A stretch of DNA of 64,000 nucleotides, from assembly GCF_030815955.1 (NCBI RefSeq), contig NZ_JAUSXK010000001.1, positions 3,100,001-3,164,000 of the forward strand, read 5' to 3'. This document shows, one piece after another, positions 41,200-47,954 of the stretch. This DNA comes from Microbacterium murale (GTDB lineage Bacteria; Actinomycetota; Actinomycetes; Actinomycetales; Microbacteriaceae). The notes below the pieces were generated by a model. It was not told the origin of the DNA. It did not search any database and saw only the letters and a list, made by a program, of their open reading frames with translations. Within the stretch, counting starts at the first letter, position 1, and the number at the start of each line of letters is the position of its first letter. The position numbers and the translations under genes were made by a program.

Positions 41200-41213
41200 T
41201 GCTCCTATGTGAT
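41200..41213. promoter_or_regulatory. SorC-type operator, weak copy, upstream of polyol dehydrogenase
   Basis: TGCTCCTATGTGAT, a degenerate copy of the 14-base repeat at 41221, exactly 21 bases upstream of it. The left half is intact and the right half has decayed. Confidence 0.6.
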
Positions 41214-41220
41214 CAGGCAG

Positions 41221-41234
41221 TGCTCCTATGAGCG
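41221..41234. promoter_or_regulatory. SorC-type operator, strong copy, upstream of polyol dehydrogenase
   Basis: TGCTCCTATGAGCG, an inverted repeat (GCTC/GAGC) matching the perfect site TGCTCGTATGAGCA at the SorC regulator gene in 12 of 14 positions. It lies four bases before a possible -35 box. Confidence 0.7.
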
Positions 41235-41237
41235 AGC

Positions 41238-41267
41238 TTGGTTCCCGTGCGTGTTCCCCCGTTAGCG
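41238..41267 (+). promoter_or_regulatory. Possible promoter of the polyol dehydrogenase operon
   Basis: TTGGTT (41238-41243), 18 bases, then TTAGCG (41262-41267). The -10 is weak, which would fit an activator bound at the paired sites just upstream. Confidence 0.4.
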
Positions 41268-41319
41268 TGACTTCTGATCACGAACGGGCGCCCCGGCGCC
41301 GCACGGAAGGACACCAACG

Positions 41320-42348
41320 ATGGCGAATCTCGCAGCGGTCATGCCCGCTCTCGGAGCGATCGAAGTGCAGGAGGTGCCGCTCCCGGATCCGCTCCCCGGT
41401 CAGGCGGTCGTTCGGGTCGAAGCCGTCGGGATCTGCGGGTCGGACACCGCGTACTACCGGGTGGGATACATCGGCGACTGGAAGGTCGATGGGCCGATCA
41501 TCCTTGGGCATGAGGCATCCGGCACGGTCGTCGCGACCGGTGACGGCGTCACGAACGTGTCGGTCGGCGATCGAGTCGCGATCGAACCAGGAACACCGTG
41601 TCGGAACTGCGAGGAGTGCCTGGCCGGGCGCTACCACCTGTGTCCGGATTTCATCTTCCTCGCAACCCCGCCGTACGACGGTGCGCTGGTGCAGAACCTC
41701 GCGATCGACGCACGCAACCTGTTCGCGATCCCCGACTCGATGTCGTTCGAGGCGGCGGCGCTGTGCGAGCCCCTCTCCGTCGGCCTGTGGGCGTGCCGTC
41801 GTGCCGGCCTCCTCCCCGGCGACCGAGTGCGCGTGACCGGCGCGGGCCCCGTCGGCATTCTCGCCGCGCAGGTCGCCCGCGCGGAGGGCGCCGCAGACGT
41901 CGTCGTCTCCGATATCTCCGATTTCCGCCTCGGCGTCGCCGCGAAGCTCGGCTTCCGCACCGAGAAAGCAGGAGAGGTCCCCGAGGGGCCCGGTCATGAG
42001 GACGCCGACGTGCTTCTGGAATGCTCCGGTGCGCCCGGCGCGCTCGCTCAGGGGCTCTGGCGTCTGCGCAATGCGGGCAGGGCCGCAATGGTCGGCCTGC
42101 CCAAGCAGGACGTCACCCTCGCGCTGTCGAGGCTCAACGTCAAGGAGATCTCGATCTCGCTCGTGAACCGCTATGCGCACACCTGGCCGACCGCCATCGC
42201 GTTCGTCTCGAGTGGACGGGTCGACGTCGAGTCCCTCGTCACCCACCGTTTCGAGCTCGCCGACACGGAATCAGCCCTCACCCTTGCCGCAGACGTACCC
42301 GACTCGCTGAAAGCGGTCGTCTACCCGAACGGCATCCCCACTCGCTGA
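41320..42348 (+). CDS. Zinc-dependent medium-chain alcohol/polyol dehydrogenase
   Basis: A 342-residue NAD(P)-dependent dehydrogenase of the sorbitol/xylitol dehydrogenase-like branch. Catalytic zinc ligands are in VGICGSDT and LGHEASG; the structural zinc site is CRNCEECLAGRYHLC; the nucleotide fold is VTGAGPVGILAAQVA with the Asp of VVSDIS at the end of the second strand, which favours NAD. It probably oxidises a polyol or sugar alcohol. It is the first gene of an operon with an ABC importer and a glycerophosphodiesterase; GGAAGGA lies before the ATG, and its stop overlaps the next start (TGATG). The promoter carries two SorC-type sites. Confidence 0.92.
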   Translation: MANLAAVMPALGAIEVQEVPLPDPLPGQAVVRVEAVGICGSDTAYYRVGYIGDWKVDGPIILGHEASGTVVATGDGVTNVSVGDRVAIEPGTPCRNCEECLAGRYHLCPDFIFLATPPYDGALVQNLAIDARNLFAIPDSMSFEAAALCEPLSVGLWACRRAGLLPGDRVRVTGAGPVGILAAQVARAEGAADVVVSDISDFRLGVAAKLGFRTEKAGEVPEGPGHEDADVLLECSGAPGALAQGLWRLRNAGRAAMVGLPKQDVTLALSRLNVKEISISLVNRYAHTWPTAIAFVSSGRVDVESLVTHRFELADTESALTLAADVPDSLKAVVYPNGIPTR

Positions 42349-43295
42349 TGTCCTCCGCAACCATCGCCTCCCCAGAGACTTCGCCCCGCGTTTCCTCGAA
42401 GCGGAGTTCTCCTGCCTTTCGTCGCCGTCGCCGACGCGGATACGCCCTCTTCGTGCTGTTCGCGTTCCCCAATCTCGCCCTCATCGCGGTCTTCGCGTAC
42501 TGGCCGATCATCGAGAACCTCTATCTGAGCCTCACCAGTTGGGACTTCATCTCACCGGAGCCGTTCTTCGTCGGCTTCTCGAACTACACGGCGCTGTTCG
42601 CCTCGGAGTCCTTTCAGAACGTGCTGTGGATCACCGTCGTGTGGGTGGTGGTCGTCGTCGGCGTGAGCCTGGTGCTCGGCCTCGCCCTGGCCGCGCTGTT
42701 CTCGATGAAGCTGCCAGGAACGACAGCGGTCACCGGCGTCGTCTTCGCGCCGCACGTGATCTCCGGTGCCGCCATCGCTGCGGTGTGGCTGTTCATCTTC
42801 GATCAGAACTACGGCCTCGCCAGAGTCGCGTTCAACATGTTCGGGCTGGATTCGCCGGCGTGGACGACCGATGCGAACTGGGCGCTCGCCGCGCTGCTGA
42901 TCGTCTCGATCTGGAAAGGCGTCGGCTTCGTCGCGATCGTCTACCTGGCCGCGATGCAGGGGCTTCCGTCTGAAGTTCTGGAAGCCGCACGGATCGACGG
43001 TGCGAACAGGTGGCAGACGTTCTCCCGGATCACACTGCCGCTGCTGTCGCCGACGACATTCTTCCTGTTGATCACGCAGACGATCAGCGCGTTCCAGGCG
43101 TTCGACATCATCGCGGTGATGACCGGCGGTGGCCCGGCATCCGCCACGACCACACTGAGCTGGTTCATCTACGACCAGGCGTTCCAACGCTCGAACGTCG
43201 GGTACTCCGCGGCGGCCGGAACGGTCATGTTCGTCATCCTCATGGTGATCACCGCGCTGCAGTTCAAGTTCATCGAGAAGAAGGTGCACTACTGA
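42348..43295 (+). CDS. ABC transporter permease, MalF/UgpA type
   Basis: A 315-residue permease with about six membrane segments after a basic N-terminal tail (SPAFRRRRRRGYALF). The EAA loop reads EAARIDGANRWQTFSRITLP. Its ATG overlaps the stop of the dehydrogenase gene and its stop overlaps the next permease start in the same TGATG form, so the operon is tightly coupled. It pairs with the UgpE-type permease and the lipoprotein encoded downstream; the ATPase must come from another locus. Confidence 0.92.
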   Translation: MSSATIASPETSPRVSSKRSSPAFRRRRRRGYALFVLFAFPNLALIAVFAYWPIIENLYLSLTSWDFISPEPFFVGFSNYTALFASESFQNVLWITVVWVVVVVGVSLVLGLALAALFSMKLPGTTAVTGVVFAPHVISGAAIAAVWLFIFDQNYGLARVAFNMFGLDSPAWTTDANWALAALLIVSIWKGVGFVAIVYLAAMQGLPSEVLEAARIDGANRWQTFSRITLPLLSPTTFFLLITQTISAFQAFDIIAVMTGGGPASATTTLSWFIYDQAFQRSNVGYSAAAGTVMFVILMVITALQFKFIEKKVHY

Positions 43296-44224
43296 TGGCC
43301 GCGATCATGACTGCGCTTCAGGTTGAGCCGGCCACCGACGACACCGCGAGCACCAGAGGCGTCACGACCGGCGACCGCAAACGGCATCGCCGCAAGGCGA
43401 ACCTGGCGCGGAACTGGTGGGGATACCTGCTGCTGATCGCTGCAGGTCTGGCATTCGTGCTGCCGCTCTACATCCTCGTCACGACCGCGTTCAAGACCAA
43501 TGGTGAGATCTACACCTGGCCCATGAAGTGGCTGCCGTCGGAATTCACCTGGGACAATCTCGTCGCCGCGTGGGAGCTCGCGCCGTTCGATGCCTTCATC
43601 ACGAACTCCGTGATCGTCACGGTGATCGGCGCGACAGCGAAGATCGTGCTCGCCGTCTTCACTGCGTATGCGTTCGCATACCTGCCGTTCCCCGGCAAGA
43701 ACGTGCTGTTCCTCGTCATGCTGGGTGCGCTGATGGTGCCCGGTCACGTGACGCTTCTGGTGAACTACATCACGATCGGGAACATGGGGCTGATCAACAC
43801 CTATGCCGGCCTCATCCTGCCGGGAGTCGCCTCGGCGTTCGGCACCTTTCTACTGCGACAGCACTTCCTGTCGCTGCCGAAAGAGGTGTTCGAAGCGGCA
43901 GAGGTCGACGGTGCGGGGCATCTGCGAAAGCTGTTCTCATTCGCGCTGCCGATGTCGATCCCGGCCGTCGCCACGGTCGGCCTGATCGCGGTGATCGACG
44001 AGTGGAACAACTTCGTGTGGCCGCTGATCATCACGAACTCCGTGAACATGCGCACACTTCCGATCGGCCTGATGTATCTGAAGGCGAACGACGGACTCAC
44101 GTCCTGGGGCGTGCTGATGTCGGGCACGCTCGTCGTCGTGCTGCCGATGCTCATCGTCTTCCTGTTCGCCCAGCGCTTCATCGTCACCGGTCTCACCGGC
44201 GCCGCTGCCGGCAGCGGGCGCTGA
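43295..44224 (+). CDS. ABC transporter permease, MalG/UgpE type
   Basis: A 309-residue permease with about six membrane segments and the EAA loop EAAEVDGAGHLRKLFSF. The N-terminal 45 residues are hydrophilic and basic (GDRKRHRRKANLARNWW). It starts within the stop of the upstream permease (TGATG) and ends 44 bases before the binding-protein gene, which has its own AAAGGAG ribosome-binding site. Conserved segments such as VTTAFKTNGEI and DEWNNFVWPLI place it with glycerol-phosphate and sugar permeases. Confidence 0.92.
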   Translation: MAAIMTALQVEPATDDTASTRGVTTGDRKRHRRKANLARNWWGYLLLIAAGLAFVLPLYILVTTAFKTNGEIYTWPMKWLPSEFTWDNLVAAWELAPFDAFITNSVIVTVIGATAKIVLAVFTAYAFAYLPFPGKNVLFLVMLGALMVPGHVTLLVNYITIGNMGLINTYAGLILPGVASAFGTFLLRQHFLSLPKEVFEAAEVDGAGHLRKLFSFALPMSIPAVATVGLIAVIDEWNNFVWPLIITNSVNMRTLPIGLMYLKANDGLTSWGVLMSGTLVVVLPMLIVFLFAQRFIVTGLTGAAAGSGR

Positions 44225-44268
44225 AACTTCCTCCGTCCCCACCCTCCACCCCCATCTAAAGGAGAATC

Positions 44269-45657
44269 ATGCACTTGTTCGATCGGCCGTCTTCGCCGCA
44301 GAGCAGACTCGCCTCCCTCAACATCACTCGCCGCCAGGCGCTCGCCGGAGGCCTGCTCCTTGCCAGCGCGCCTCTGCTGGCCGGTTGCTTCGGCGGCGGT
44401 GGCAGCTCGGGAACGGTCTACGGACAGCCCAGCGGTGACACGCCCAAGCAGTACAAGGACCGCCAGCGCGTCGTGATGTGGAGTCCCTTCACCGCGCACA
44501 ACGCCGAGATCCTGCAGGCGAACATCGATGCGTTCAACGAGTCGCAGGATGCGATCTTCTGCGAGGTCCAGATCTTCGAGGGCTACGACAAGGTCGAGTC
44601 GAAGCTCGCGGCGAGCCTTCAGGCCAAGCAGGTCCCTGATCTGTCGGTGATGAGCGACATCGTCTGGAACCGCTTCTATCTGAACGACGCCCTCGAGCCG
44701 CTCTCGGGCTACTTCGACGATTCGTTCGGCACGGATTCGTTCCACGAGCAGTTCCTCAAGGAGGGCACTCTCAAGGACAAGATCTGGTGGGTGCCGTTCG
44801 GTCGCTCGACGCCACTGTTCTACTACAACCGCGACATCTTCGCCGAGGTCGGTCTGCCCGACCGTTCTCCGAAGACGTACTCCGAATATCGCGAGTGGGG
44901 CAAAGCGCTGGCGGGGTACTCGCGCAACGGCACGAAGGTCGCGATGCGGGGCTACACCGGCAACGACGACTGGTACTTCCAGGGGTCGTCGTGGGCATTC
45001 GGCGGCGGCTACTCGGACGGCCTGGACATGAGATTCACGTCTGAAGGGACGATCAAGGCGCTGGAGTTCGATCGGGCGTTCATCCACGATGACAAATCCG
45101 GCTATCTCTCGGCCGATCCCGGTGGTGACTTCATCGCCGGCGCCACTGCGTCGATCACCGAGTCGACCGGGGCGCTGACGGGCATCGCCGCGTCTGCAGA
45201 GTTCGAGTTCGGCTGCGGTTTCCTCCCAAAGGAGGACGGCACTGGCGTTCCCACCGGTGGCGGCGGACTGTCGATCCTGGGCTATGCCTCGGATGACCGC
45301 AAGAAGGCGGCGTGGGAGGTGCTGAAGTTCCTCTCGTCCGGGGATGCGGCGATCGAGTGGACCCTCGGCACCGGTTACATGCCGACCACGAAGGCGGCGT
45401 TGGAGTCGGACAAGGTCAAGGCGAAGGCCAGCGAGAATCCCAACTACCAGGTCGCGATCGACCAGCTCGAGATCGCGCAGGGGCCGGATGTCGTGCGCAA
45501 GTTCGTTCCGGAGGCCGTGCCGGAGATGAAGGGCGCCATCCAGGCGGTCTATTCGGGCAACGCGGATGCGGAGAAGACGCTCAAGACGGTGCAGGCCAAC
45601 CTCGAGCCGGCGCTCGAGAAGGTCCGTGCGAAGTACGACGCGAAGGTGGGTGCATGA
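44269..45657 (+). CDS. UgpB-like ABC transporter substrate-binding lipoprotein
   Basis: A 462-residue solute-binding protein. The signal sequence combines a twin-arginine motif (ITRRQALAGG) with a lipobox LAGC, so export is probably by the Tat route followed by lipidation. The mature part is a family 1 binding protein; the FGRSTPLFYYNRDIF segment resembles glycerol-3-phosphate and glycerophosphodiester binding proteins (UgpB). The adjacent glycerophosphodiester phosphodiesterase supports a phosphodiester ligand, but this is inference. A good AAAGGAG site precedes ATG 44269. The stop overlaps the next start (ATGATGA). Confidence 0.9.
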   Translation: MHLFDRPSSPQSRLASLNITRRQALAGGLLLASAPLLAGCFGGGGSSGTVYGQPSGDTPKQYKDRQRVVMWSPFTAHNAEILQANIDAFNESQDAIFCEVQIFEGYDKVESKLAASLQAKQVPDLSVMSDIVWNRFYLNDALEPLSGYFDDSFGTDSFHEQFLKEGTLKDKIWWVPFGRSTPLFYYNRDIFAEVGLPDRSPKTYSEYREWGKALAGYSRNGTKVAMRGYTGNDDWYFQGSSWAFGGGYSDGLDMRFTSEGTIKALEFDRAFIHDDKSGYLSADPGGDFIAGATASITESTGALTGIAASAEFEFGCGFLPKEDGTGVPTGGGGLSILGYASDDRKKAAWEVLKFLSSGDAAIEWTLGTGYMPTTKAALESDKVKAKASENPNYQVAIDQLEIAQGPDVVRKFVPEAVPEMKGAIQAVYSGNADAEKTLKTVQANLEPALEKVRAKYDAKVGA

Positions 45658-46403
45658 TGAGTCTGCTCATCGTGGGGCATCGCGGTGCCATGGCCCATTT
45701 GCCCGAGAACAGTCTGGCCTCGTACGCGCTCGCCGAGGAGGTCGGCGTCGATGAGATCGAACTCGACGTGCGCCTCAGCAAGGACGAGCAGCTGTTCCTG
45801 CTTCATGACGCGACGCTGGACCGCACCGCCGGTGATGATTCGGCACGCGACCTCGGACCGGCAGCAGAGCTCACGCTCGCCCAGCTGCAGGCGGCGACGC
45901 TGGACTCGGGCAGGGGAGTGGTCACGCTCGCGGAGATGTACGACGCGACGCATACGTTCATCCAGCTCGAGATCAAGGACCCGGCCGTCGTCCCGCATCT
46001 CGCTCGCTTCTTCGAAGAGCGCCCGGATGATGCCGCGCGCACCGTGCTCACGGGATTCGATGCGGATGCCGTACGGCATGCCGCTGAGATGATGCCGCAG
46101 ATCGGGCGACAGGTCATCGTCACCGAGATCAGCAAGGCCGAGGATTTCGAGGGCGGCCTCTGGGCGCTCATGGATCACGCCAAGGTGACGCGCTTCGCCA
46201 GCGGATTCTCGGGCCTCACTGCCGAGTTGGTCGATCAGCTTCATGCTCGCGACATCGAGGTGCACGTGTGGCCGTTGCGCACGATGGAGCAGACGCGCGA
46301 GGCGCTCCGCCTCGGCGTCGACGGTGCGACCTCGGACGATCCGGCGCAGGCCATCCAGTGGCGGGACCAGATCCTCGCGGAGAACGGCGTGACCGTCCGT
46401 TGA
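45654..46403 (+). CDS. Glycerophosphodiester phosphodiesterase family protein
   Basis: A 249-residue GDPD-family enzyme hydrolysing glycerophosphodiesters to glycerol 3-phosphate and an alcohol. Active-site motifs are GHRGAMAHLPENS at the start, EIELDVRLSKD and the general-base histidine in LLHDATLDRT; a later IQLEIKD also fits. No signal peptide is present, so hydrolysis is cytosolic after import by the ABC system encoded upstream. The start may be ATG 45654 or 45657, both overlapping the binding-protein stop. It closes the dehydrogenase/importer operon and is followed by a strong hairpin. Confidence 0.92.
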   Translation: MMSLLIVGHRGAMAHLPENSLASYALAEEVGVDEIELDVRLSKDEQLFLLHDATLDRTAGDDSARDLGPAAELTLAQLQAATLDSGRGVVTLAEMYDATHTFIQLEIKDPAVVPHLARFFEERPDDAARTVLTGFDADAVRHAAEMMPQIGRQVIVTEISKAEDFEGGLWALMDHAKVTRFASGFSGLTAELVDQLHARDIEVHVWPLRTMEQTREALRLGVDGATSDDPAQAIQWRDQILAENGVTVR

Positions 46404-46408
46404 GTGAT

Positions 46409-46446
46409 GGGGAAGGCGGGGGCCGCGAGCGGTCCCCGCCTTCCCC
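46409..46446. terminator. Bidirectional hairpin after the GDPD gene
   Basis: Arms 46409-46421 and 46434-46446 are perfect 13-base complements; the interior GCCGC/GCGGT can extend the stem. It lies between convergent genes. Confidence 0.75.
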
Positions 46447-46453
46447 CTGTGAT

Positions 46454-47152
46454 TCAGTCGTCGTCGTCCCCGGCTGAGACCACCGACTCCACGCCGTCGA
46501 TCTCCGAGAGCTGGCCCACCAGTGCGGGGAACTCGGTGAAGTCGCCGGTGAAGCGCAGTGTCAGCTCGCGCAGCTTCGAATCATCATCGCTCGTCGCCTC
46601 CTCCAAGGCGGAGTGGTAGCCCTGCTGCGCCGACATCTCCAGCACCTGCCGCAGTACGTTGTTGCCTCGGCGGTAGCGGATGGTGAGCACAGGATCGGGA
46701 ACTTCTGGACTGATGAGTCGCCCCACGAACGTGAGCACGCCGACCGTCACCAGGTGCAGCACGGTCGCGGCCACCGCGATGATCGGCATGCCCGCGCCGC
46801 ACGCCATGCCGATCGCCGCGGTCACCCAGATGGACGCTGCGGTCGTGAGACCGCTGACGGCGCCCTTGCGCACGAAGATGACGCCGGCGCCCAGGAAGCC
46901 GATGCCCGACACGATCTGTGCGGCGATGCGCGAGGGATCGAGGACCACATCCGTGCCGACGACGTTGCTGAATCCATAGGCCGACACCAGCGTGAACACG
47001 GCCGAGCCGAGTCCGACCAGGGTGTGCGTGCGCAGGCCCGCGCTCTTGAGCTTGCGCTGCCGTTCGACGCCGATGATCGCCGAGAGCACGAACGCAATCG
47101 CGAGCAGGGCTATCTCGGTGAGGGTCGTCTCTGAGTACAGCTCGATGAACAC
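46454..47152 (-). CDS. MgtC/SapB-family membrane protein
   Basis: A 232-residue protein. The N-terminal part has about four or five membrane segments with the family signature AIIGVERQRKLKSAGLRTHTLVGLG and GIGFLGAGVIF; the C-terminal cytoplasmic part (from about residue 150) is an ACT-like domain ending in an Asp run. MgtC relatives help growth in low magnesium and modulate ATP synthase, but small homologues are of unknown role. GTG 47152 is chosen with AGAAG upstream; the longer frame is low-complexity. It lies 11 bases behind the HAD gene, so the two are probably co-transcribed. Confidence 0.87.
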   Translation of the reverse strand: MFIELYSETTLTEIALLAIAFVLSAIIGVERQRKLKSAGLRTHTLVGLGSAVFTLVSAYGFSNVVGTDVVLDPSRIAAQIVSGIGFLGAGVIFVRKGAVSGLTTAASIWVTAAIGMACGAGMPIIAVAATVLHLVTVGVLTFVGRLISPEVPDPVLTIRYRRGNNVLRQVLEMSAQQGYHSALEEATSDDDSKLRELTLRFTGDFTEFPALVGQLSEIDGVESVVSAGDDDD

Positions 47153-47163
47153 GGGAACTTCTT

Positions 47164-47856
47164 TCAGGTGAGGCGAATCAGCAGCCGGCCGTCGCTGCGT
47201 TCGACGCGGACCGACTCGAGTGAGTCGAGAACGATGTGGGCGCGGCTCTCCAGCAGTCGGCGTGAATCCGTACCGAGCACGCCGACGACCAGGCATCCCG
47301 CCGATGTCGCCGATGTCGCCCCGGCCACGGTGTCTTCGAATGCGATGACCACGCCGACGTGACCGCGATCGGCGAGGTGCTGGACGCCGGCAAGGAAGGG
47401 CTCGGCCGCAGGCTTGCCGTGGACGACGTCACCTCCGGTGATCCGGAAGGCCGGCTCCGGGAGATCGGTCGCGCTGAATCGTGCGACGGCCACGGGCCGT
47501 GCGGCGGAGGTCACGACACCCCATTGATCGTGCGGCAACGCTTCCAGCAGTTGTCGCGCGCCGGGCAGGGAATTGAGCTGCTGGCCCGGTCGTGCCTCGA
47601 TCTCCGCGAGCCGGCTCTCTGCCCGCTCGTGATCGCCGACGGCCAGTCCGGACGCTGTCACGACGGCCCTGGCGGTCTTGCCGTGCATGGTCGCCGGTGG
47701 TGCGGGGATGCCGTGCTCGCTGGCCCAGATCCGCCATGCGTCCTCAACGGCGGGGATCGAGTCGACGATGGTGCCGTCCATGTCGAAGAGCGCGCCGGCG
47801 ATGGTGATCGACTGTCCCCGTCGCAGTGCGGCAGCGAGAGTGGCGAGGCTATTCAT
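47164..47856 (-). CDS. HAD-family phosphatase (sugar- or polyol-phosphatase like)
   Basis: A 230-residue haloacid dehalogenase-type hydrolase. Motif I is ALFDMDGTIVDS, the cap follows, motif II is VVTSAARPVAVA, motif III lysine in HGKPAAEPF and motif IV VIAFEDTVAGATSA. This is the subfamily of phosphoglycolate, glycerol- and sugar-phosphate phosphatases. It is divergent from the SorC regulator, 91 bases away, with the paired SorC sites between them, so it probably belongs to the same regulon as the dehydrogenase/importer operon. The specific substrate is unknown. Confidence 0.88.
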   Translation of the reverse strand: MNSLATLAAALRRGQSITIAGALFDMDGTIVDSIPAVEDAWRIWASEHGIPAPPATMHGKTARAVVTASGLAVGDHERAESRLAEIEARPGQQLNSLPGARQLLEALPHDQWGVVTSAARPVAVARFSATDLPEPAFRITGGDVVHGKPAAEPFLAGVQHLADRGHVGVVIAFEDTVAGATSATSAGCLVVGVLGTDSRRLLESRAHIVLDSLESVRVERSDGRLLIRLT

Positions 47857-47919
47857 CCGGCATCCGTTCCTGTGGCTTCCGACAGACGTGCCGGCGATCC
47901 CTCCAAGGCTATGGCGAAC

Positions 47920-47933
47920 CGCTCATAAGTCCC
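47920..47933. promoter_or_regulatory. SorC-type operator, weak copy, at the regulator gene
   Basis: CGCTCATAAGTCCC, a half-conserved copy of the 14-base repeat, 21 bases before the perfect copy at 47941. The spacing equals that at the dehydrogenase operon. Confidence 0.5.
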
Positions 47934-47940
47934 CATATAG

Positions 47941-47954
47941 TGCTCGTATGAGCA
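47941..47954. promoter_or_regulatory. SorC-type operator, perfect copy, over the regulator start codon
   Basis: TGCTCGTATGAGCA has 5-base arms TGCTC/GAGCA. Its centre contains the ATG (47948) of the regulator gene. A -10 box TATAGT (47936-47941) overlaps its left edge, which puts the transcription start on or next to the ATG. Confidence 0.7.

What the first reader, a model, noticed from the sequence alone, without database searches (positions are those of the whole stretch)
41200..47954. Shared paired operators link a SorC regulator to a dehydrogenase/importer operon 6.6 kb away
The 14-base inverted repeat TGCTC(C/G)TATGAGC(A/G) occurs before the polyol dehydrogenase (41221) and over the SorC gene start (47941). 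In both places a decayed copy lies exactly 21 bases upstream (41200 and 47920). Two helical turns of spacing with one strong and one weak site is what a tetrameric SorC-family regulator would need. The repetition of both motif and spacing at two loci is unlikely by chance.
Basis: partly seen in the sequence, partly recalled or inferred. Interest (0 to 1): 0.78.

Follow-up and report, generated by a model that had tools for sequence, protein, structure and literature searches.

The report
SorC operator pairs controlling glycerophosphodiester import
Short paired DNA sites mark where a sugar-sensing regulator should sit to control its own gene and a nutrient-uptake operon, and similar sites recur at the same distances from promoters in related bacteria, one of them overlapping the regulator gene's start codon.

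Summary
In detail: two 14-bp inverted repeats, each with a weaker copy exactly 21 bp upstream; this pair is unique in the 4.11-Mb genome. The 21-bp partner recurs before SorC orthologues in other actinobacterial genera and before the importer operon in Brachybacterium, Auraticoccus and Krasilnikoviella. Among 15 same-genus dehydrogenase orthologues, 3 have the pair and 1 a single strong site, all in genomes with the SorC orthologue; none of 10 genomes without it has a pair.

Three things go further. (1) The SorC-side operator contains the start codon of an apparently leaderless gene: a TANNNT -10 hexamer ends on its first base in 21 of 25 orthologues. (2) It also faces a divergent phosphatase gene. 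(3) The strong site lies 27-30 bp (mostly 28) before a TANNNT in 30 of 33 outward promoters, whichever side the weak partner is on. The operon encodes a Ugp-like importer and a glycerophosphodiesterase besides the dehydrogenase.

Best model: a DeoR-like SorC tetramer represses its own leaderless promoter and acts on outward promoters from a fixed place near -47.5, as activator or repressor/activator switch. Binding, tetramer, effector and sign of control are untested.

The parts
41200..41213 (+). weak (distal) operator copy before the dehydrogenase/importer operon, TGCTCCTATGTGAT, inferred position -75 to -62
41221..41234 (+). strong operator before the operon, TGCTCCTATGAGCG, inferred position -54 to -41
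   Evidence: kept in L057, L058 and, as a single site, L064
41263..41268 (+). inferred -10 element TAGCGT of the operon promoter, 28 bp after the strong operator (inferred transcription start 41275)
   Evidence: the only TANNNT between operator and start codon, at 28, 28, 29 and 28 bp in four genomes; start site inferred, not mapped
41320..42348 (+). zinc-dependent medium-chain polyol/sugar dehydrogenase (best solved relative: sorbitol dehydrogenase)
42348..43295 (+). ABC importer permease, UgpA-like
   Evidence: PRK10561 E 3.4e-48, below the equivalog cut-off
43295..44224 (+). ABC importer permease, UgpE-like
   Evidence: PRK10973 E 5.4e-50, below the equivalog cut-off
44269..45657 (+). lipoprotein solute-binding protein, UgpB/UspB-like
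   Evidence: 4mfi E 1.2e-58; 6r1b E 2.3e-57
45657..46403 (+). glycerophosphodiester phosphodiesterase (start codon assumed; one search scanned 45660-46400)
   Evidence: PF03009 E 5.3e-32
46454..47155 (-). MgtC-family membrane protein, about 8 bp after the HAD gene on the same strand (start codon assumed)
47164..47856 (-). HAD-family sugar-phosphatase-like protein, divergent from SorC
47906..47911 (-). inferred -10 element TAGCCT of the divergent HAD promoter, 29 bp from the strong SorC-side operator
   Evidence: same letters at 29 bp in L082 and L083, other TANNNT at 28-29 bp in L034, L085, L087 and at 27 bp in L089
47920..47933 (+). weak operator copy, CGCTCATAAGTCCC; -28 to -15 of the inferred SorC promoter and -34 to -21 of the inferred HAD promoter
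47936..47941 (+). inferred -10 element TATAGT of the SorC promoter; its last T is the first base of the strong operator
   Evidence: TANNNT at this position in 21 of 25 SorC promoters
47941..47954 (+). strong operator TGCTCGTATGAGCA, containing the SorC start codon (47948-47950) and its second codon
47948..48877 (+). SorC-family regulator, 309 aa, DeoR-like

Best explanation
The paired 14-mers are the operators of the SorC-family protein encoded at 47948. Each pair is two half-operators two helical turns apart, read by a dimer of dimers as in Bacillus subtilis DeoR. On its own gene the strong half covers the -10 end, the transcription start and the start codon of a leaderless message, so binding shuts the gene (autorepression). 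The same pair faces the divergent HAD-MgtC promoter. The second pair, 6.7 kb away, sits just upstream of the -35 region of the operon for a dehydrogenase, a Ugp-like importer and a glycerophosphodiesterase. In nearly all outward promoters the strong site keeps the same distance to the -10 element (28 bp, centre near -47.5), which is what contact with RNA polymerase would require; so I think that the regulator activates these promoters, or switches them from held to activated, when it binds a phosphorylated product of the pathway. Shown by sequence: sites, spacing, uniqueness, conservation, co-occurrence, fold family. Inferred: binding, tetramer, leaderless start, promoter positions, autorepression. 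Guessed: sign of control at the operon, effector, substrate.
For: Pair unique in genome. Offset 21 is by far the best of offsets 10-60 in 9 orthologue promoters and of offsets 14-59 in 20 non-redundant ones: mean score -7.1 against -28.0, sd 3.6. Of 15 dehydrogenase orthologues, pair in 3 and single strong site in 1, all four in SorC-bearing genomes; best pair score -1.1 or lower in the other 11. Pairs before the importer operon in 6 of 6 loci of Brachybacterium (4), Auraticoccus and Krasilnikoviella whose operon start lies on the fetched DNA. TANNNT 27-30 bp from the strong site in 30 of 33 outward promoters; the only other place of TANNNT within 70 bases is 3 bp, in 3 promoters. TANNNT at -12 in 21 of 25 SorC promoters, next best position 2 of 25. 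Best solved-structure matches are DeoR bound to its operator and Klebsiella SorC. DeoR bound only fragments holding the full operator and CggR has halves of very unequal affinity (PMC11229326, sections seen).
Against: No binding data exist. Five of the 20 non-redundant promoters have their best partner at an offset other than 20-22. Three of 33 outward promoters have no TANNNT at the expected place (L092, L093, L104), and four of 25 SorC promoters none at -12. The dehydrogenase promoter of G352 (L064) has one site only; G317 has a SorC orthologue (47%) but no site at its dehydrogenase; a genome without the orthologue (L060) has a lone site of score 8.4, 239 bp upstream. Two Brachybacterium loci (L088, L090) have no operator at their SorC gene. 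DeoR, the best structural relative, is a repressor. The genome has two further SorC proteins, one with a TGCGCATCTGAGCA site upstream, so cross-binding is possible.
Confidence: 0.58

Rival explanations
1. Pure repressor: the tetramer holds all three promoters shut and an effector releases it, as described for DeoR and CggR; the fixed 28 bp is an accident of descent or of packing two promoters around one operator.
For: DeoR and CggR repress (PMC11229326). In the four Brachybacterium operon promoters and in 16 of 20 divergent promoters examined a weak copy (score -5 or better) lies 21 bp downstream of the strong site, at about -34 to -20, where a tetramer would block the -35 region.
Against: In the window, AK031, G221, Auraticoccus and Krasilnikoviella operon promoters the weak copy is upstream, about -75 to -62, and the downstream position scores -4.0 to -26.1, yet the strong site keeps 28-29 bp to the -10. 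No significant -35 consensus in 24 promoters (mean best match 2.79 of 6 against 2.49 for shuffled spacers; 6% of 500 shuffles reach it), though a slight excess is there.
Confidence: 0.35
2. The sites are read mainly by one of the two other SorC proteins of this genome.
For: Paralogues at 44795 and 3683409; the first has a TGCGCATCTGAGCA site upstream of its gene.
Against: The strong site overlaps the start codon of this SorC in 21 of the 23 loci, and within the genus the operon pair follows this SorC.
Confidence: 0.05
3. Chance inverted repeats; the agreement of the two places is coincidence.
For: Loosened single 14-mers are at or below chance level.
Against: Uniqueness of the pair, conservation and co-occurrence with SorC.
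Confidence: 0.01

Closest known systems
DeoR of Bacillus subtilis (SorC/DeoR subfamily; PMC11229326, PDB 8r7y)
   Same: Sequence and fold match over nearly the whole chain; two unequal half-operators about two turns apart, one a palindrome and one weak; full operator needed for binding in solution.
   Different: DeoR operator spans -60 to -21 of one promoter; here pairs sit over an apparently leaderless start codon, between divergent promoters, and at -75 to -41 of a remote operon. TGCTC arms instead of TTGAACA.
CggR of Bacillus subtilis (PMC11229326)
   Same: Two half-operators of very different affinity bound by a dimer of dimers.
   Different: Winged HTH subfamily; operator at +32 to +77 of one operon.
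CitI of Weissella paramesenteroides (SorC family; PMC10798043, passages seen)
   Same: Two operators between the regulator gene and a divergent catabolic operon; activates, with effector-enhanced binding.
   Different: A/T-rich region, citrate pathway; raises polymerase recruitment at its own promoter as well; no leaderless start mentioned in the passages seen.
Ugp importers (E. coli Ugp; M. tuberculosis UgpB, 6r1b/4mfi)
   Same: Two permeases, a UgpB-like binding protein and a glycerophosphodiesterase; M. tuberculosis UgpB was solved with glycerophosphocholine and binds other glycerophosphodiesters (PMC8603345, passages seen).
   Different: All NCBIfam Ugp equivalog scores are below cut-off; no ATPase gene among the five operon genes; a polyol dehydrogenase leads the operon; SorC control.
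Leaderless autoregulated regulators: AcuR (PMC3017554, passages seen), with lambda cI and tetR named there
   Same: Regulator gene whose message starts at its start codon; in AcuR the operator overlaps the promoter.
   Different: TetR or phage repressor families. Here the start codon itself lies inside the palindrome and the same site serves outward promoters at a fixed distance.

Membership tests
SorC/DeoR subfamily regulator | C-terminal sugar-binding effector domain (PF04198) | tested here: met
   PF04198 E 2e-42, residues 66-305, cut-off passed
SorC/DeoR subfamily regulator | N-terminal HTH of about 50-60 residues, then a beta linker | tested here: inconclusive
   Three helices at 7-22, 27-34, 38-50 in the model; residues 57-60 have pLDDT under 50 and no clear strand follows. 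Size fits DeoR, not CggR
SorC/DeoR subfamily regulator | Fold of a solved full-length member | tested here: met
   8r7y (DeoR with operator) E 7.6e-25 and 2w48 (SorC) E 2.2e-22; sequence E 1.4e-15 to 8r7y
SorC/DeoR subfamily regulator | Two half-operators about two helical turns apart | tested here: met
   21 bp, unique pair, offset 21 best in 13 of 20 non-redundant SorC promoters and 20 or 22 in two more
SorC/DeoR subfamily regulator | Tetramer on DNA | not testable with these tools
   needs protein
SorC/DeoR subfamily regulator | Phosphosugar effector | not testable with these tools
   needs protein
DeoR or LsrR equivalogs (NCBIfam) | Curated score cut-off | tested here: not met
   95 of 420 bits and 50.8 of 486 bits; so a relative, not DeoR or LsrR itself
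Ugp glycerol-3-phosphate importer equivalogs | Curated score cut-offs of UgpA, UgpE, UgpB | tested here: not met
   165/335, 170.6/297, 77.2/411 bits
Ugp-like importer operon | ATPase gene in the operon | tested here: not met
   the five genes 41320-46403 are dehydrogenase, two permeases, binding protein and GDPD; not looked for elsewhere in the genome
CitI-type activator | Paired operators between divergent promoters | tested here: met
   HAD or binding-protein gene diverges from SorC across the pair
CitI-type activator | Effector raises affinity and recruits RNA polymerase | not testable with these tools
   needs protein and effector

The most novel reading that the evidence does not exclude
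A SorC-family switch built around one rigid unit: a strong operator that at once holds the -10 end, start point and start codon of the regulator's own leaderless gene and, at a fixed 28 bp, serves as the activator site of an outward promoter. The weak partner, placed on either side, decides whether the tetramer first blocks or only anchors. The effector would split the tetramer and leave a dimer on the strong site, turning the regulator from repressor into activator.
Probability: 0.3. Interest if true: 0.65.

Novelty: new variant of a known kind. Interest (0 to 1): 0.52.

Why it matters
The layout turns a single-genome guess into a rule with numbers (21 bp between sites, 28 bp to the outward -10, 6 bp from the inward -10 to the start codon) that can be tested with one protein and three promoter fragments. 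It offers a way to find targets of SorC proteins in actinobacteria, where three searches of an open-licence library listed no paper that describes this operator. It would show how one SorC tetramer might repress and activate by position alone, and it proposes a regulon for glycerophosphodiester use.

Tried and rejected
An exported phosphoesterase gene (PF04185) at genome 3297601 has a one-mismatch site over its start codon with a TAGGAT -10 in the same register. Its 90% orthologue in G297 keeps the leaderless layout but not the inverted repeat, so I do not count it as a target; it also shows that TANNNT-6-ATG alone is not special to SorC genes. The other five one-mismatch sites (L003, L006, L008, L009, L010) overlap mechanical open frames of 150 aa or more, have no TANNNT near 28 bp on either side, and no clear 21-bp partner by eye.

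I considered whether the ATG inside the operon-side operator (41228) is a start codon: its frame is not that of the dehydrogenase and L057 has TTTGAG there, so no.

A third operator 21 bp downstream of the strong operon site was looked for and not found in the window (score -4.0). A -35 consensus was looked for and is not significant. In the 16-18 kb around the 11 dehydrogenase orthologues without the site that I fetched (10 without SorC, plus G317) no binding protein or GDPD match exceeded 90 bits and only distant permeases (28-36%) showed in 6 of 11, so they say nothing about the whole operon.

Choices of mine that bear on counts: six close relatives named in the script were dropped (33 to 27 promoters); a 60% identity limit was used (25 to 20). 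L088 and L090, whose SorC follows the GDPD gene without an operator, were left out. In L097, L101, L037 and L039 I set the start codon at the operator, a few residues before the protein match begins. In AK031 (L057) the two operon sites score alike (8.3 and 8.0) and I called the downstream one strong by analogy with the window. The matrix comes from 9 orthologue sites.
Full report
OBSERVATION. Searching the whole genome (one contig, 4,111,363 bp) with the pair pattern at up to 3 mismatches returns these two pairs at 0 mismatches and otherwise only the second pair on the opposite strand; the reversed control pattern gives one hit per strand. The single motif, loosened, is at or below chance level (13 against 18.7 expected in the window; 177 against 259 for the backwards control in the genome), so it is the exact match plus the partner that carries the signal.

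GENES. The regulator (309 aa) has the SorC sugar-binding domain. Its best solved relatives by predicted fold are DeoR with its operator, then Klebsiella SorC and E. coli LsrR (model mean pLDDT 88); by sequence DeoR is also first. The operon 41320-46403 encodes a sorbitol-dehydrogenase-like enzyme, UgpA- and UgpE-like permeases, a UgpB/UspB-like binding protein and a glycerophosphodiesterase. The three Ugp equivalog scores are below cut-off, so this is Ugp-like only. Divergent from SorC lies a HAD phosphatase gene followed by an MgtC gene. The genome has two other SorC proteins. Record titles of near relatives place the window in Microbacterium (L082, Microbacterium sp. AK031, and G297, same genus as the window, share a contig length of 1,097,265).

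COMPARISON AT THE REGULATOR. Of 366 same-genus genomes, 12 (own included) have an orthologue at E 1e-70 or better. A scan of genome contigs gave 23 loci in Microbacterium, Brachybacterium, Auraticoccus, Krasilnikoviella, Ruania, Frigoribacterium, Arthrobacter, Agromyces, Zhihengliuella, Paenarthrobacter and Nesterenkonia (names as in the record titles; the Frigoribacterium record matches G026, which genome search puts in the window's genus). I examined 25 SorC promoters: the window, 21 of these 23 loci (L088 and L090 have no operator at SorC) and three from the genome search. In all 25 the strong site covers the start codon, ATG or GTG; the second codon is AGC in 24 of 25. A TANNNT hexamer ends on the first base of the site, 6 bp before the start codon, in 21 of 25; the misses are L089, L092, L093 and L094; the next best position has 2 of 25. 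This is the layout of a leaderless gene. In 20 non-redundant promoters the offset of 21 bp has a mean partner score of -7.1 against -28.0 (sd 3.6) for the other offsets; 21 is the best offset in 13, 20 or 22 in 2, and another offset in 5 (L091, L094, L097, L098, L104). An earlier scan with 9 promoters agrees.

COMPARISON AT THE OPERON. Of 366 genomes, 15 (own included) have a dehydrogenase orthologue at E 1e-130 or better. In the 260 bases upstream, the 21-bp pair lies in 3 (window, G297, G221; pair scores 25.2, 16.4, 15.9) and a single strong site in 1 (G352, score 12.4); these four hold the SorC orthologue. The other 11 have best pair scores of -1.1 or lower. Ten of them lack the orthologue; one of these (L060) has a lone site of score 8.4 at 239 bp. 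The eleventh, G317, has a 47% SorC orthologue and no site. By my own arithmetic the one-sided Fisher p is 0.022 for pairs (3 of 5 against 0 of 10), 0.004 for any clear site (4 of 5 against 0 of 10) and 0.017 if L060 is counted; the window and G297 are close relatives, so the real evidence is weaker than these numbers. Importer modules with 61-83% identical permeases, binding protein and GDPD beside SorC occur in four Brachybacterium loci, Auraticoccus, Krasilnikoviella and Ruania. The operon start is on the fetched DNA in six of these seven (not Ruania), and all six have a 21-bp pair before it, pair scores 14.8 to 28.8. In Krasilnikoviella a 64% dehydrogenase sits behind the HAD gene in the divergent direction, so it seems to have moved between two promoters that both carry the operators.

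DISTANCE TO THE -10. For 33 outward promoters (10 remote operons, 7 facing HAD genes, 15 facing binding-protein genes, 1 unassigned) I listed every TANNNT within 70 bases of the strong site. The strong site was chosen by matrix score or by the start codon, not by this distance (AK031 is the exception told under Tried and rejected). TANNNT lies at 28 bp in 19, 29 in 9, 27 in 1 and 30 in 1, so in 30 of 33; three have none there (L092, L093, L104); the only other position is 3 bp, in 3 promoters. After dropping six close relatives, 23 of 27 have it at 28-29. The sequence between shows no common motif apart from the right arm of the downstream weak copy. If the hexamer spans -12 to -7, the strong site is centred near -47.5. 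The weak partner is upstream of the strong site in the window, AK031, G221, Auraticoccus and Krasilnikoviella operon promoters (scores 9.4, 8.3, 2.0, 10.1, -0.7) and downstream in the four Brachybacterium ones (1.2 to 7.1) and in 16 of 20 divergent promoters examined (score -5 or better); L064 has none.

MECHANISM. Shown: sites, spacings, conservation, co-occurrence, protein family. Inferred: this SorC binds them as a dimer of dimers and shuts its own leaderless gene. The sign at the outward promoters is open. A constant distance whichever side the weak site is on, together with no significant -35 consensus (24 promoters), speaks for contact with RNA polymerase, and a SorC-family activator with two operators between divergent promoters is known (CitI; PMC10798043, passages). 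The downstream weak sites and the repressor role of DeoR and CggR speak for repression. A switch is possible: with effector CggR was seen to fall from tetramer to dimers, one of which can stay on the stronger half, although earlier scattering data cited there saw a loosely bound tetramer (PMC11229326, discussion). The substrate may be a glycerophosphodiester whose alcohol part is a polyol; that is a guess from gene content, with M. tuberculosis UgpB as precedent (PMC8603345, passages).

ODDS. That the pairs are operators of this SorC I put at about 0.93.

LITERATURE. PMC11229326: outline, introduction, first part of the results, the CggR structure section and the first part of the discussion were seen. 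Passages only: PMC10798043, PMC8603345, PMC3017554, PMC4746261. Searches for the 14-mer TGCTCATATGAGCA (0 papers) and for SorC operators or regulons listed no paper that describes this motif; only listings were seen there, and the library holds open-licence papers only.

VERDICT. An ordinary kind of regulator with a real, well-conserved and unusually rigid promoter layout. The finding stands and is richer than described.

Noticed in passing
L086 about 627, L084 about 638 (Brachybacterium): Before the importer operon a short stretch, judged by eye, resembles only the N-terminus of the dehydrogenase, as if the dehydrogenase gene had been lost there while its leader stayed.
   Followed up: no
L045/L034 (G221) and L104: The SorC gene matches in two pieces in different frames (tblastn) although its operator is intact.
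   Followed up: no
L085 10354-10902, L087 10243-10914: An MgtC gene (52-56% identical) diverges from the importer operon in Auraticoccus and Krasilnikoviella, while in the window it follows the HAD gene; it seems to travel with this regulon.
   Followed up: partly
L105 3595-3608 (genome 3297594): Operator-like site over the start codon of an exported phosphoesterase gene; inverted repeat not kept in the 90% orthologue.
   Followed up: yes
L054 (own genome, upstream of the SorC paralogue at 44795-45547): By eye, TGCGCATCTGAGCA and a TGCTCAC-type half-site 32 bp on, so the paralogue may use related half-sites with another spacing.
   Followed up: partly
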